Part shown: piece after piece, positions 47,972-60,080 of the stretch | Numbering within the stretch: position 1 is the stretch's first letter | Layout: every line of letters starts with the position of its first letter | Source: Metridium senile | Taxonomy: Eukaryota > Cnidaria > Anthozoa > Actiniaria > Metridiidae | DNA length: 64,000 bases | Direction: 5' to 3' | Assembly (NCBI GenBank): GCA_949775045.1 | Contig: OX459098.1 | Span: 12,000,741-12,064,740 of the forward strand | Position numbers and translations under genes: made by a program | The notes under the pieces: model-generated | What the model was told of the DNA's origin: nothing | The model's database searches: none | Seen by the model: only the letters and a program-made list of their open reading frames with translations

Positions 47972-48793
47972 TTATGTTGTTCGGTGATCAAGTGCTTCGC
48001 AGTTTACTTGTTTTGCAGCTTCACAGATGGATATTTTATGAAGTTCCTTGGCAAGCTGAAGAAAAAAACAAAAGATGTTTAGACTTTAGGGAGAATCCCC
48101 AATCCCATCATATGAATGACAGAAAGATCTAGATCTGTAAAAAAAAAAATGGATAAAGTTATCAAGTGCTGATTTATTAGCCTACTCCGCAGGCAGCTCT
48201 CATATGTCTTTTCATCGGGCTTCCTGATTTTATCTGTTGGATACACCTATATCAAAAAACGTTGTCAGAAGGAGATCTGCAATCTGCAATCTGAGACCGA
48301 AATGAATTGGCCCTGTTTTTTGCGCTTAGCACCTTCAGATTTATATTTACCATCGCCATATCCGAAGCCAGAAAGTGCACGCAAACGAATGTTTAATGAG
48401 AAAAAACTGCCGTACCCCAGAATTCATTTTGGTCTCAGATTGCAGATTCAGATCTCCTTCTCACAACGTTTTTTTGAAATAGGTGTATACTAATTTTCCG
48501 GTGAATAACGGTATTCAGGCTTCGTACAACGCGGGCCCGAGATATAGACAACCACTGTGGTAGTTCAAAAGTCGATTATGTAAGGTCTATAAGCTGTTTC
48601 CACGGCTTGAAAACCGTAATTTCTTTTAAAATCAAAGTACTGTCATTCTTACCTCGCTTTTGATCTTTAAACCTCTTTTGCGTCCAAAGTTAATCCCAGG
48701 CATAGACGCTTCAACAGGCTGACTTTCGCTTAGAAGACAAACCATCATCACTACCATCATCAAGCTTACAGTCAATACTTTGTTGGATGCCAT
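47972..48793 (-). CDS. Secreted amidated-peptide precursor 1 (PGINF-amide type)
   Basis: Exons on the minus strand: 48793-48653 and 48055-47972, phase-0 intron, 74 aa. The signal peptide is residues 1-29 or so, with a strongly hydrophobic core (VLTVSLMMVVMMVCLL) ending PVEA. Immediately after it comes SMPGINF followed by GRKR: glycine as amide donor plus a basic cleavage site, predicting the heptapeptide SMPGINF-amide. The tail is GLKIKSE, then exon 2, which carries a C-x7-C motif (CEAAKQVNC). One short amidated peptide directly behind the signal peptide and a two-cysteine tail is the layout of SIFamide and luqin/RYamide precursors, but the peptide matches neither, so the family is unassigned. 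A TATATAAA box lies about 75 bp upstream of the start. It pairs with the gene at 56,890. Expression is unproven. Confidence 0.72.
48240..48490. mobile_element. MITE in the intron of peptide precursor 1
   Basis: GATACACCTATATCAAAAAA with CGTTGTCAGAAGGAGATCTG and the inverted CAGATCTCCTTCTCACAACG with TTTTTTTGAAATAGGTGTAT. 251 bp. The copy in the other peptide gene's intron is absent, so it arrived after the duplication or was lost there. Confidence 0.85.
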
Positions 48794-49115
48794 CTTAACT
48801 TGTTAGAGATGATTACTAGAGCTGGTCTCGTCGTAATGTGTGTTGTATGACTAGTCTAGATGGGTTTATATAGATATTTATCATCCATCTAGCCAAGCAG
48901 ATGGTACATTAGTAAAAGGCGTCCCATAACTTGATGAACTACTCAAGTTCATTGTCCAATATATGTGACGTAATTGATGTGATGAATAGTTTCTAAATTG
49001 GTAAACTAAGCAGGAAGGTATTGGCAAGAGAGCACTATTCTCTTGGTCTGGTGTAAAACTACTCTTAGTAAGTCGATTTCCTACTAGGAAACATTTAAGA
49101 GCATTAACTAAAGAC
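48794..49115 (-). promoter_or_regulatory. Duplicated promoter of peptide precursor 1
   Basis: About 320 bp upstream of the start match, in inverted orientation, the promoter at 56,569-56,889 with few changes. Visible sites: TATATAAA at 48,865-48,872 (minus sense) and a CRE/ATF-like TGACGTAA at about 48,965. Similarity ends near 49,115. Confidence 0.8.
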
Positions 49116-49454
49116 TGGCCGATTAATTGTGTACTTAGGAAACGACACATTGTTACCAAGAAAAGGGGATGAAATAAATGGGAAATTAAAGTCTATTTAC
49201 GGAAATGTAAAAAAAAATAAGAGAAAAAGGCATTTATTTTAAGACATTATCGTGGCGTTGTTGTAGCTTTATGACTTATAAACACTAGTTTCTCTTCCTC
49301 TCTCTGTTCTCTGTATATATATAGTCGTATTTGTAGTGTCTTTCGATAAAAATTCAAACTTTCAACCAGTTTGGATTTGTAAGTTTATATCAAAAGCAAT
49401 CAACTGTTCAGTTGAATTTTGTGTATATTTCAAGGTTTAAGTGTTATCTATATA

Positions 49455-56568: not shown

Positions 56569-56889
56569 TCTTTAGTAAATGCTCTTAAATGTTTCCTAGT
56601 AGGAAATTGACTTACTAAGAGTAGCTTTACACCAGACCAAGAATATAGTGCTCTCTTGTCAATACCTTCCTGCTTAGTTTACCAATTTAGAAACTATTCA
56701 TCACATCAATTACGTCACATATATTGGACAATGAACTTGAGTAGTTCATCAAGTTACGGGACGCCTTTTACTAATGTACCATCTGTTTGGCTAGATGGAT
56801 GATAAATATCTATATAAGCCCATCTAGACTAGTCATACAGCACACATTACGACGAGAGCAGCTCTAGTAATCATCTCTAACAAGTTAAG
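56569..56889 (+). promoter_or_regulatory. Duplicated promoter of peptide precursor 2
   Basis: Inverted counterpart of 48,794-49,115. TATATAAG at 56,811-56,818 sits about 75 bp upstream of the start codon; a CRE-like TTACGTCA lies at about 56,711. Conservation includes both boxes and the presumed 5' UTR (ACACATTACGACGAGAGCAG). Confidence 0.8.
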
Positions 56890-59800
56890 ATGGTATCCAA
56901 CAAAGTATTGACTGTAAGCTTGATGATGGTAGTGATGATGGTTTGTCTTCTAAGCCAAACTAAGCCTGTAGAAGCGTCTTATCCTGGGATTAACTGGGGC
57001 AAAAGGAATGGTATACATAACAAGGTAAAGTCTTCATAGATTTAAAAAGAAACGGAGCGCTTTAGTAACATACTCTTCTCAATATTCTTTTCATTTTGAG
57101 CATTGATTTTACTCTAATTAAAAAAATATATTAACATTGTATTACTATAATAAATTTTGTTCTTTACTACATTTATCGATATTTTTACAATTATAGTATT
57201 AATAATATTTCATTTACATTTTCATCGGCGTTTATGCATGTTGCTGTATCACCCGTAAATGTAATAACAACCGTAAATGTAATACCCATCGTAAATGTAA
57301 TAAAAATCAACCGTAAATGTAATACCCACCGTAAATGTAATAACTATCAACCGTAAATGTAATAACCGACCCCACCGTAAATGTAATAAAATTTAACCAT
57401 AAATGTAATAATCGAAACCCACCGTAAATGTAATAACATTCAACCGTAAATGTAACAAGTGTTTATATTGTCATTTAACTGAACTTCCATACAGCATTGC
57501 ATAACAATTAGTATTCCCTCCTTTTCTGTAAATGAACACGTGACATTATGACGTCAGCTACTAAAGGGAATATCTTTTTTGTTCTTCCATAGTGATCTTG
57601 AACTTCTGTTCTATTAACTATGATATAAATCCTGAAATTATGTGAATGCTGAATGTACTGTAGTGATTGTGAATACCCTGTACCCTGTTATATTAGTAAA
57701 CAATATAGGCTTGTACAAAACTTACAGCTTTTAATTAGCATCTACATAAAATTATATTTTTACATAATTTTCAAGTACGAATGCAAATTAAAATGCGAAT
57801 GGAACACGCGAGTAGCCGAACTGTCAGTAGGATGAAAAATGGGAAACTGAAAATGGGGCTCTCAGTAGAAATGTGCAGAGAAAAGATAGGAAAAAAACAC
57901 AGTCGACAAGATAGAGTCAGTGATCAGAACGGTTTTTATTTTTGCACTTGGGGAGTTTTCGGATTCGAATCCCGCCCTGATTTGAGGCTTTATTTTTTCC
58001 TGATTACTTTTAGTTTAAATCCAGTGTCTCGGCCATGCTTGTAAATATCTAACTGGATTACCTTCTTGCAATTTGAGAATCTTCAGTTATAAAAGGCTGC
58101 CGAGTTACCTGCCCAGTCACCTGTAATAATATATATATATATATATATGAACCCTTACGAAATAATTTTTTTAAATTGAAATTGCATAAGAGGCTGGAGA
58201 AATATTCTTAAGGCCCACAGAGCTCACATATTATGTATAGGACGTCTTTCTATTAGGTGTCACGGAGTGCCGGTTTAGAGCCAATCATACGCAAGTGCAT
58301 GTCGCGGAAAATATTATACATATTTTACTAGCTTTTACAGATCTTTAATTCTTCCAATTATGCACTATACATTTTCCCTTTGGTTGATGACGTTATGACG
58401 TCACAATGCTGTATTGCAATGCTGTATCGAAGTTCAGTTAAATGACAGTATAAACATTTGTTACATTTACGGTTGAATGTTATTACATTTACGGTGGGTT
58501 TCGATTATTACATTTATGGTTAAATATTATTACATTTACGGTGGGGTCGGTTATTACATTTACGGTTGATAGCTATTACATTTACGGTGGGTATTACATT
58601 TACGGTTGATTTTTATTACATTTACGGTGGGTATTACATTTACGGTTGTTATTACATTTACGGGTGATACAGTTGCTATATAAAAAAAATATATTGTTTT
58701 ATTTACTATTACAGTTAACTATAGTTTAGTTTCAAAAACGTCTTAATTTCGTATAGTTTATGGAAATGCCTGAAATGCATCAATATGAAATTAAATTTTA
58801 AATTTTAATTGGAAAGGATTTAATCAAGTTTTGAGTAATAGCTCTATTAATATACAATTATAAAAGCACCAACTGGTGAAATAACCACTAACTGCTGGTT
58901 ATTGAGCCCAGGGGTAAACATCTATAGTTGTTGCGCGCGTTGACAAAAATATGACACGAATTTCATGAAATATAAGAGAGAACTAATGATGATAATAATA
59001 ATAATAATAATAATAATAATAATAATAATAATAATAATAATAATAATAATAATAATAATAATAATAATAATAATAATAATAATAATAATAATAATAATAA
59101 TAATAAAATTAATAATAATGATGATGATGATAATAATAAAATAGGACTCGCAAAAGTAAACCAACTAGCCAAAAAGTGCCAGAAATGGATAATTTTGCAA
59201 AATTGTGAGATCGTGAAGGCCTTATATACACGTTAGGAATCAAAAACACTGTTGTGATGGGTATAAAACTGAACATTGCCTAGAAATGCCTATAAAATTT
59301 CCGCAATACTAATTGCATGTAAACCAAGAAAAGTTTAAATAAACGATACAATAATGATAATTTATTCACTTATAAAGTCACAAATTTCAATTCAAAAATA
59401 TAAAAAAATATAACATATTCAAAAATAACTAAAATTAATTGACACCATTCAATCTACCAAGTATGGTAAAAATGTCCAGGCAATTATACCAGATCGTTAT
59501 ACGATCATTATTAGTTGGTAGAGGGCCTAAAGCAACTTTAAAAAAACAAAGTCGCCACTACATCCTGTGGTTGCTGCACGGAAAAACTAACAAAAACGCA
59601 AAAGAGAAATGACTTATATATTGGATAATAATATAATATCATTAATAGTTCCTATTTTTACACACACCGAGTTGTGTATAATTTGAATAGCTATTTTTCT
59701 TACTGGCTAGCCTCTTTTACATACAAAACCCCATCAATAATAATAATAATAATAATTTCTTTCTTTATGGAACGTATTATACAAAGTCTCAATGCGTTTT

Positions 59801-60080
59801 ACAAAAAAATACAAACTAGGAAATTATACTGGAAATTGCTTTAAAATTACATTATTTTCAAACGAGGCTAGCAAATCAACAATAGAAGATCGCCATATTT
59901 GGTCTATGGTTATATAATAACAGTTATTCTTAATATCATAATTAAAATTAATATTTTTGATTAATTTATAACTTTTTTCAGGTCCAGCTCACGAAAGAAG
60001 GTCAAGCACGAGCGTATTTATGTGAAGCAGCGAGATTACTAAACTGTGGACGAGACAACGACAGAAGACAGAAGATCTGA
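56890..60080 (+). CDS. Secreted amidated-peptide precursor 2 (PGINW-amide type)
   Basis: Exons 56890-57024 and 59982-60080, phase-0 intron of 2957 bp, 77 aa. The signal peptide is nearly identical to precursor 1. SYPGINW followed by GKR predicts the heptapeptide SYPGINW-amide. The tail NGIHNK and exon 2 end with the same two-cysteine motif (CEAARLLNC) and a basic C-terminus (RDNDRRQKI). Relative to precursor 1, exon 1 changes mainly around the peptide (M to Y, F to W) and in the spacer, while exon 2 keeps little beyond CEAA and NC. AATAAA occurs about 25 bp after the stop. The intron houses a 1.43-kb transposon and a long (AAT)n run. It could be a neuropeptide or another secreted peptide; expression is unproven. 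Confidence 0.73.
57244..58672. mobile_element. DNA transposon with mirrored subterminal repeat arrays
   Basis: 1429 bp, ends CTGTATCACCCGTAAATG and complement, flanked by TTG on both sides. Each end carries ten copies of CCGTAAATGTAATA, partly alternating in spacer (CCCA versus ATCAA types), in mirror order; the arms continue through TCATTTAACTGAACTTC to about 260-280 bp. The core has no transposase; it includes a tRNA-like GATTCGAATCCCGCCC near 57,963. Located in the intron of peptide precursor 2. Confidence 0.92.
58985..59130. repeat. (AAT)n microsatellite
   Basis: About 40 AAT trinucleotides followed by GAT variants in the intron of peptide precursor 2; minus-strand poly-Ile/Leu frames are artefacts. 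A shorter (AAT)n is at 59,737-59,756. Confidence 0.97.

What the first reader, a model, noticed from the sequence alone, without database searches (positions are those of the whole stretch)
47972..60080. Inverted pair of genes for an apparently undescribed amidated peptide family, S-[M/Y]-P-G-I-N-[F/W]-amide
Seen: two two-exon genes, head to head, 74 and 77 codons, each with signal peptide, one heptapeptide followed by G plus a basic site (GRKR / GKR), and a second exon with C-x7-C. Frames, splice sites and phases are the same in both. Two paralogues keeping signal peptide, amidation site, dibasic site and cysteines while the rest drifts is what selection on a peptide hormone would leave. I do not recognise PGINF/PGINW-amides from any known family.
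Basis: partly seen in the sequence, partly recalled or inferred. Interest (0 to 1): 0.88.

Follow-up and report, generated by a model that had tools for sequence, protein, structure and literature searches.

The report
Sea anemone amidated-peptide gene cluster
A sea anemone genome carries a small cluster of related genes that each appear to make one short amidated signalling peptide of a sequence I could not find described, plus a conserved cysteine-pair tail; it looks like a new branch of a known sort of anemone neuropeptide gene, still without proof of expression.

Summary
Better evidence: a third gene 11 kb beyond gene 2, outside the window, has the same build with another peptide (VPAPPF-Gly-KR) and a related exon 2. 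An exon-2 signature pattern has five matches in 389 Mb, three of them these genes. Contig sizes point to Metridium senile. Nearest known peptides are the single-copy Antho-RWamides, including pQLPGIRWamide, but the one RWamide precursor that I found in this genome has no tail cysteines and no coding intron. Best reading: an actiniarian family of single-copy amidated neuropeptide precursors that I could not find described, giving MPGINF-amide, YPGINW-amide and VPAPPF-amide. Expression, processing and orthologues are untested.

The parts
48653..48793 (-). Gene 1 exon 1 (coding): signal peptide, SMPGINF-G-RKR, spacer
   Evidence: donor GAG|GTAAGA, phase 0
48683..48706 (-). Gene 1 predicted peptide SMPGINF plus amide-donor Gly (RKR follows at 48674-48682); mature form perhaps MPGINF-amide
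   Evidence: translation; trimming to X-Pro is inference
48056..48652 (-). Gene 1 intron, phase 0, holding a short element with terminal inverted repeats (about 48245-48490 by eye)
47972..48055 (-). Gene 1 exon 2: LAKELHKISICEAAKQVNCEALDHRTT*, C-x7-C
48866..48872 (-). TATATAA, 79 nt before gene 1 ATG
56890..57024 (+). Gene 2 exon 1 (coding): signal peptide, SYPGINW-G-KR, spacer
   Evidence: donor AAG|GTAAAG, phase 0
56977..57000 (+). Gene 2 predicted peptide SYPGINW plus amide-donor Gly (KR follows at 57001-57006); mature form perhaps YPGINW-amide
   Evidence: translation; trimming to X-Pro is inference
57025..59981 (+). Gene 2 intron, phase 0, holding a 263-nt inverted repeat of CCGTAAATGTAATA units (57244-57506/58410-58672), probably an insertion
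59982..60080 (+). Gene 2 exon 2: VQLTKEGQARAYLCEAARLLNCGRDNDRRQKI*, C-x7-C
56811..56817 (+). TATATAA, 79 nt before gene 2 ATG
48688..49115 (-). Inverted-repeat arm 1 (96% to arm 2): about 322 nt upstream plus first 106 nt of gene 1 coding sequence; gapped alignment reaches about 49162
56568..56995 (+). Inverted-repeat arm 2: same part of gene 2; gapped alignment reaches about 56523

Best explanation
The two genes are members of a small clustered family (at least three apparently intact genes and one broken copy) of single-copy amidated neuropeptide-type preprohormones in a sea anemone, most likely Metridium senile. SHOWN by sequence: open frames, consensus splice sites in phase 0, a signal-like N terminus (judged by eye) directly followed by one short X-Pro...[F/W]-Gly peptide, then a dibasic or tribasic site, then exon 2 with a conserved C-[E/Q]-A-A-[K/R]-x-x-[N/D]-C core. 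INFERRED: signal peptidase cuts near VEA|S; prohormone convertase cuts after the basic site; the Gly becomes an amide; the N terminus is trimmed to an X-Pro form, giving MPGINF-NH2, YPGINW-NH2 and (gene 3) VPAPPF-NH2; the peptides act on class A GPCRs in the nerve net. The cysteine-paired tail would fold as a short disulphide-closed helix that helps the small prohormone fold and be sorted, or is co-released. The genes arose by local duplication; the 5' half of genes 1 and 2 was recently copied or converted while peptide and tail diverged.
For: Frames, splice sites and phases. Third gene of the same build 11 kb past gene 2: MNTKTAQVLLAALVVMVAVFGKCIECSVAVPAPPFGKRTIVSTK|GYFQARRNVCQAAKLMDC..., donor AAG|GTAAAT, acceptor CATACAG|, phase 0, TATAAAA at -85. 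Exon-2 core of 10 codons: amino-acid identities 5-6 of 10 pairwise, second codon positions 8-9 of 10 identical but third positions only 4-6 of 10, as expected of coding constraint, though the numbers are small. Exon-2 regex 3 real, 0 in controls; genome-wide 5 matches, 3 here. The best sulfotransferase hits with named sources are from sea anemones, Actinia tenebrosa 50% and Nematostella 44%; contig sizes match the Metridium senile assembly closely. Single-copy precursors with the peptide directly after the signal sequence, one to four RWamide genes per species, and N-terminal protection by pQ or Pro are established for hexacorals (PMC7523074 and PMC9545775); Nematostella mass spectrometry shows N-terminal cleavage motifs with Pro at position 2 and/or 3 (PMC11087051 passage).
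Against: No transcript, peptide or orthologue seen: no hit for the two precursors among 5.8 billion proteins (2 candidates, none at E 10 or better), although a near-identical copy of this window's sulfotransferase is in that database (P0001); very short ORFs may be missing from it. Signal-plus-amidation alone is not above chance. Single tblastn E-values for gene 3 are weak (0.99 for exon 1, 0.043 for exon 2, 244 kb searched); the case rests on their combination. Two other genome places match the exon-2 pattern; no exon 1 was seen in the 1.5 kb upstream of them, but gene 2's own exon 1 would also lie outside such a stretch, so they are not excluded as further members. Signal peptides were judged by eye; no predictor was available.
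Confidence: 0.7

Rival explanations
1. Divergent Antho-RWamides: paralogues of the single-copy RWamide precursors in which Arg became Asn and the N-terminal Gln became Ser, still acting on RWamide-type receptors on muscle.
For: pQLPGIRWamide (Discosoma, Ricordea) and pQGLPGIRWamide (Pocillopora) differ little from SYPGINW-amide; same layout (single copy right after the signal sequence, several genes per species) (PMC7523074).
Against: No Arg-Trp end. The Metridium Antho-RWamide-2 precursor (L029) has a C-terminal part without cysteines and no coding intron. The 39 known LRWamides are described as ending LRW, in a few cases IRW or MRW (PMC9545775 passage). No match in the genome for a PG[I/L/M/F]RW-Gly-basic DNA pattern. 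Gene 3 (VPAPPF) is unlike RWamide. Limit: the search for RWamide genes asked only for QG[I/L/M/F]RW, so other RWamide paralogues (QSLRW, QGGLRW types) were not examined.
Confidence: 0.12
2. Secreted peptides of gland cells or nematocytes (venom-like or defensive) and not neuropeptides: local duplication, converted 5' halves and a fast-changing product.
For: Tight cluster with a broken copy, homogenised signal region and a changed product; sea anemone toxin families often look so (recalled).
Against: The product is a 6-7 residue amidated peptide with two substitutions between genes 1 and 2; only two tail cysteines; three intact copies seen; no Pfam match for either window precursor.
Confidence: 0.13
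3. Not functional: chance open frames and decaying copies.
For: A fourth, broken exon 1 lies nearby (L018:4088-3735); no expression evidence; signal region evolves as neutral DNA between genes 1 and 2.
Against: Three genes keep frame, phase, splice sites, a TATA box at -79 to -85, amidation and basic site, and the exon-2 core with third-position change.
Confidence: 0.05

Closest known systems
Antho-RWamides (hexacoral neuropeptide family 10 of Koch and Grimmelikhuijzen 2020, PMC7523074)
   Same: One short amidated peptide directly after the signal sequence, several paralogous genes per species, and in some species an ...PGIRW-amide close to ...PGINW-amide
   Different: Ends in RW-amide and usually starts with pQ; the one precursor found in this genome (L029) lacks C-x7-C and a coding intron; here Asn replaces Arg and two of the three peptides end in Phe
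Phenyllactyl peptides Antho-RNamide, -RIamide, -KAamide (families 7-9, PMC7523074)
   Same: Single copy directly after signal sequence, 1-3 genes per species
   Different: Start with Phe, end RN/RI/KA-amide (with YRV and YKI variants); C-terminal parts of their precursors not seen here
GLWamides (metamorphosin type)
   Same: PG-x-W-amide flavour (GPPGLW-amide)
   Different: Multi-copy precursors; sequence PGLW, not PGINW
Luqin/RYamide-type precursors of Bilateria (PMC7041311)
   Different: Cysteines usually 10 residues apart (8 in C. elegans), here 7; peptides end RF/RY/RW-amide; no likeness beyond layout was seen, and none was tested by alignment

Membership tests
Antho-RWamide | C-terminal [L/I/M]RW-amide | tested here: not met
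   Peptides end INF, INW and PPF
Antho-RWamide | Single peptide copy directly after signal sequence | tested here: met
   signal peptide judged by eye
Antho-RWamide | Precursor C-terminal part and exon structure like the RWamide gene of the same genome | tested here: not met
   L029: 63 aa, one coding exon, no cysteine after the signal region; one RWamide gene examined, other RWamide types not searched
Antho-RWamide | Activates LRWamide receptors | not testable with these tools
   needs receptor assay
Luqin/RYamide type | RF/RY/RW-amide C terminus | tested here: not met
   family definition from PMC7041311 passages
Luqin/RYamide type | C-terminal cysteines about 10 residues apart | tested here: not met
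   7 apart in 3 of 3 genes
Phenyllactyl peptides (Antho-RN/RI/KAamide) | N-terminal Phe directly after signal sequence | tested here: not met
   S or M, S or Y, and V or A
Phenyllactyl peptides (Antho-RN/RI/KAamide) | Same precursor tail (C-x7-C) in Metridium | not tested
   genome search for FLRNG[KR]R did not complete
Amidated neuropeptide precursor (general kind) | Signal peptide, Gly amide donor, basic cleavage site | tested here: met
   signal peptide judged by eye
Amidated neuropeptide precursor (general kind) | Expression in neurons and mature amidated peptide detected | not testable with these tools
   no RNA or mass-spectrometry data

The most novel reading that the evidence does not exclude
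A new cnidarian neuropeptide family defined by its precursor and not by its peptide: one X-Pro-x-x-x-[F/W]-amide after the signal peptide, coupled through a phase-0 intron to a disulphide-tail exon. That layout also marks bilaterian single-copy precursors such as luqin (and, from recall, SIFamide), so it could be a cnidarian counterpart of a precursor type thought to be bilaterian, with the tail exon as the homologous part.
Probability: 0.06. Interest if true: 0.85.

Novelty: new variant of a known kind. Interest (0 to 1): 0.47.

Why it matters
Sea anemone nervous systems run largely on short amidated peptides, and scripts that look for repeated copies miss single-copy precursors (the authors of PMC7523074 needed other searches for them). 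Here is a three-gene family whose peptides differ but whose tail exon is conserved, so the tail can be used as a probe for peptides that copy-based scripts overlook. If expressed, it adds ligands to test on the many orphan anemone GPCRs, and its inverted pair is a compact case of duplicate peptide genes with a homogenised promoter and diverged product.

Tried and rejected
Bilaterian origin: I first searched echinoderm, lophotrochozoan and luqin papers (passages only); dropped once the sulfotransferase next door matched Actinia and Nematostella and contig sizes matched Metridium senile.

Luqin membership: rejected on cysteine spacing and peptide end.

Signal-peptide conservation as evidence of selection: rejected.

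Signal plus [FWY]G[KR][KR] as significant alone: rejected.

Genome matches of the PGIN DNA pattern: 11; 9 lie outside the window's pair, and I translated all 9 (7, 2). They read as chance frames, a repeat, an AMP-binding-like enzyme and a galactosyltransferase-like protein (which does have GRR after PGINFG); these protein names are by eye.

Searches that led nowhere: no match for the precursors in Pfam (both) or PDB (gene 1 only); NCBIfam was asked only about six neighbouring ORFs, without a match. Protein search with RWamide-like chimeras: 1 candidate, no hit, uninformative. Paper searches for precursor sequences or zoantharian peptides. Supplementary files of PMC7523074, said there to hold the RWamide precursor sequences, were not tried, as the cap for supplements is 0; so the tail of RWamide precursors was checked only through the one Metridium gene. 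Longer upstream stretches of the two other signature matches could not be had.
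Full report
WHAT IS THERE. Gene 1 (- strand, ATG at 48793, last base of stop at 47972) encodes MASNKVLTVSLMMVVMMVCLLSESQPVEA-SMPGINF-G-RKR-GLKIKSE | LAKELHKISICEAAKQVNCEALDHRTT. Gene 2 (+ strand, ATG at 56890, stop ending at 60080) encodes MVSNKVLTVSLMMVVMMVCLLSQTKPVEA-SYPGINW-G-KR-NGIHNK | VQLTKEGQARAYLCEAARLLNCGRDNDRRQKI. The bar marks the intron, phase 0 in both, with GT-AG ends and a pyrimidine run before the acceptor. A TATATAA lies 79 nt before each ATG.

WHAT THE CONSERVATION MEANS. 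An inverted repeat (48688-49115 against 56568-56995, 428 nt, 96%) covers about 322 nt before the ATG and the first 106 nt of coding sequence, and ends inside the peptide; a gapped alignment stretches it to 545 columns at 89%. Mismatches upstream are 11 of 320 nt; codons 1-30 give dN 0.059 and dS 0.055. BLAST aligned the introns only for some tens of bases past the donor and exon 2 is strongly diverged: an old pair whose 5' halves were recently duplicated or converted.

EVIDENCE FOR A FAMILY. I fetched 90 kb on each side and searched 244 kb. Beyond the window's right edge, L018:7336-7467 and L018:8413-8517 (+) form a third gene of 78 aa: MNTKTAQVLLAALVVMVAVFGKCIECSVAVPAPPFGKRTIVSTK | GYFQARRNVCQAAKLMDCKPDPQEPSQRTDMLDN, again phase 0 with GT-AG ends and a TATAAAA at -85. 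Its tail matches gene 2's (QARxxxC[E/Q]AA[K/R]L[L/M][N/D]C). Its peptide is different but follows the same X-Pro-x-x-x-[F/W]-Gly-basic plan. A broken copy of gene 3's exon 1, split by about 230 nt of extra DNA and with an early stop after its ATG, lies at L018:4088-3735 (-); its last part is 88.8% identical over 125 columns. The 244 kb hold no fourth exon-2 signature. In the 10-codon tail core the three genes share 5-6 of 10 residues pairwise, with 8-9 of 10 second positions but only 4-6 of 10 third positions identical.

CHANCE. The regex C[EQ]AA[KR]..[ND]C: 3 in 244 kb, 0 in the reversed sequence, 0 in 40 Markov simulations. A slightly looser DNA pattern over the whole 389-Mb genome: 5 matches, 0 for the control pattern; 3 are the cluster. 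At the 2 others (C1:1295069, C5:18364986) I saw no candidate exon 1 in the 1.5 kb upstream; by eye the first has no phase-0 acceptor close by and the second only an AG without a pyrimidine run. That stretch is short: gene 2's own exon 1 lies 3 kb before its exon 2, so these two are unlikely but not excluded. The amidation half alone is within chance (4 real, 2 reversed; simulations mean 0.8, maximum 4). The PGIN pattern has 11 genome matches; only the window's two sit behind a signal-like segment and before a basic site in a small ORF.

WHOSE GENOME. The sulfotransferase ORF at 14474-15910 has its best hits with named sources in Actinia tenebrosa (50%) and Nematostella (44%), and a near-identical unnamed match. 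G000 has 389.28 Mb in 169 contigs; C4 is 23,194,541 and C9 19,108,152 bases. The Metridium senile assembly lists chromosome 4 at 23.19 Mb, chromosome 9 at 19.12 Mb, span 390.9 Mb in 250 scaffolds, chromosome GC 35.0-35.5% (PMC11362738, passages with Table 2). The match is close and not exact (19.11 against 19.12 Mb, 169 against 250 sequences; short scaffolds may have been left out). Window GC is 35.4%. I take it as Metridium senile, chromosome 4.

COMPARISON WITH THE KNOWN. In hexacorals, single-copy precursors with one amidated peptide directly after the signal sequence are an established kind: Antho-RWamide, -RNamide, -RIamide, -KAamide (PMC7523074: outline, sections 7, 10 and 11, and passages). 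Two corallimorpharians have pQLPGIRWamide and Pocillopora damicornis pQGLPGIRWamide. The resemblance to SYPGINW-amide is real, but the defining Arg-Trp is missing. To test the precursor I searched the same genome: one match for QG[I/L/M/F]RW-Gly-basic (L029) gives MESKKILILLVISCVLLSVSIDTTEA-QGLRWGRR-EINDDLSDARAFKEWLQQRDANKKRGTAN, an Antho-RWamide-2 precursor in one coding exon and without tail cysteines. A PG[I/L/M/F]RW-Gly-basic pattern has no match. RWamide paralogues of other spelling were not searched. The main text of the Nematostella deorphanisation paper has none of the strings PGIN, GINF, NFamide or NWamide, and its section on receptors names no PAPPF peptide (PMC11087051: passages and section 7); its supplements were not readable. 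PMC6756747 also lacks those strings. Luqin-type precursors of Bilateria share the layout of amidated peptide plus cysteine pair, but with spacing usually 10 and RF/RY/RW-amide ends (PMC7041311 passages).

HOW IT PROBABLY WORKS. Inferred from the layout and from hexacoral precedent: removal of the signal peptide, convertase cleavage at RKR/KR, trimming, amidation, N-terminal trimming to an X-Pro end resistant to aminopeptidases, then release onto GPCRs. Antho-RWamides contract sphincter muscle at nanomolar doses (reported in PMC7523074 passages), so a neuromuscular role is a reasonable first guess. The tail, with its cysteine pair on what may be a helix (no structure was predicted), may aid folding and sorting or be a second product. 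None of this is shown.

LIMITS. No RNA, peptide or orthologue evidence; the two protein searches made with precursor queries found no relative (the third search was for the sulfotransferase); signal peptides were judged by eye; the protein search of the genome did not complete. Text searches that returned nothing relevant for the peptide sequences, as far as listed.

Noticed in passing
L018:7336-8517 (+), 7.3 kb right of the window end: Third paralogue with peptide VPAPPF-G-KR and tail CQAAKLMDC, phase-0 intron.
   Followed up: yes
L018:4088-3735 (-): Broken copy of the third gene's exon 1: about 230 nt of extra DNA and an early stop; last part 88.8% identical over 125 columns.
   Followed up: partly
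L029 (C16:3575566, +): Antho-RWamide-2 precursor of the same genome, 63 aa, single coding exon, no tail cysteines.
   Followed up: yes
L030 (C1:1295069) and L034 (C5:18364986): Two further matches of the exon-2 signature pattern, without an exon 1 in the 1.5 kb upstream.
   Followed up: partly
57244-57506 and 58410-58672: 263-nt inverted repeat of CCGTAAATGTAATA units inside gene 2's intron; looks like a mobile element.
   Followed up: no
about 48245-48490: Short element with terminal inverted repeats (AACGTTTTTT...GATCTG) inside gene 1's intron, by eye.
   Followed up: no
14474-15910 (-): Carbohydrate sulfotransferase in one long ORF; best hits with named sources in Actinia tenebrosa and Nematostella.
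   Followed up: partly
18193-20102 (-): Exons of a TRM5/TYW2-type tRNA methyltransferase.
   Followed up: no
26663-27145 (+): Exon of a Rab3GAP regulatory subunit.
   Followed up: no
28963-29997: Long tandem repeat whose frames stay open on both strands for over 300 codons; probably a minisatellite and not a gene.
   Followed up: no
42927-45662 (-): Three long ORF pieces (for example GQYFHYVTKWMHALNC) with no Pfam match at cut-off and no NCBIfam match; perhaps exons of one gene.
   Followed up: no
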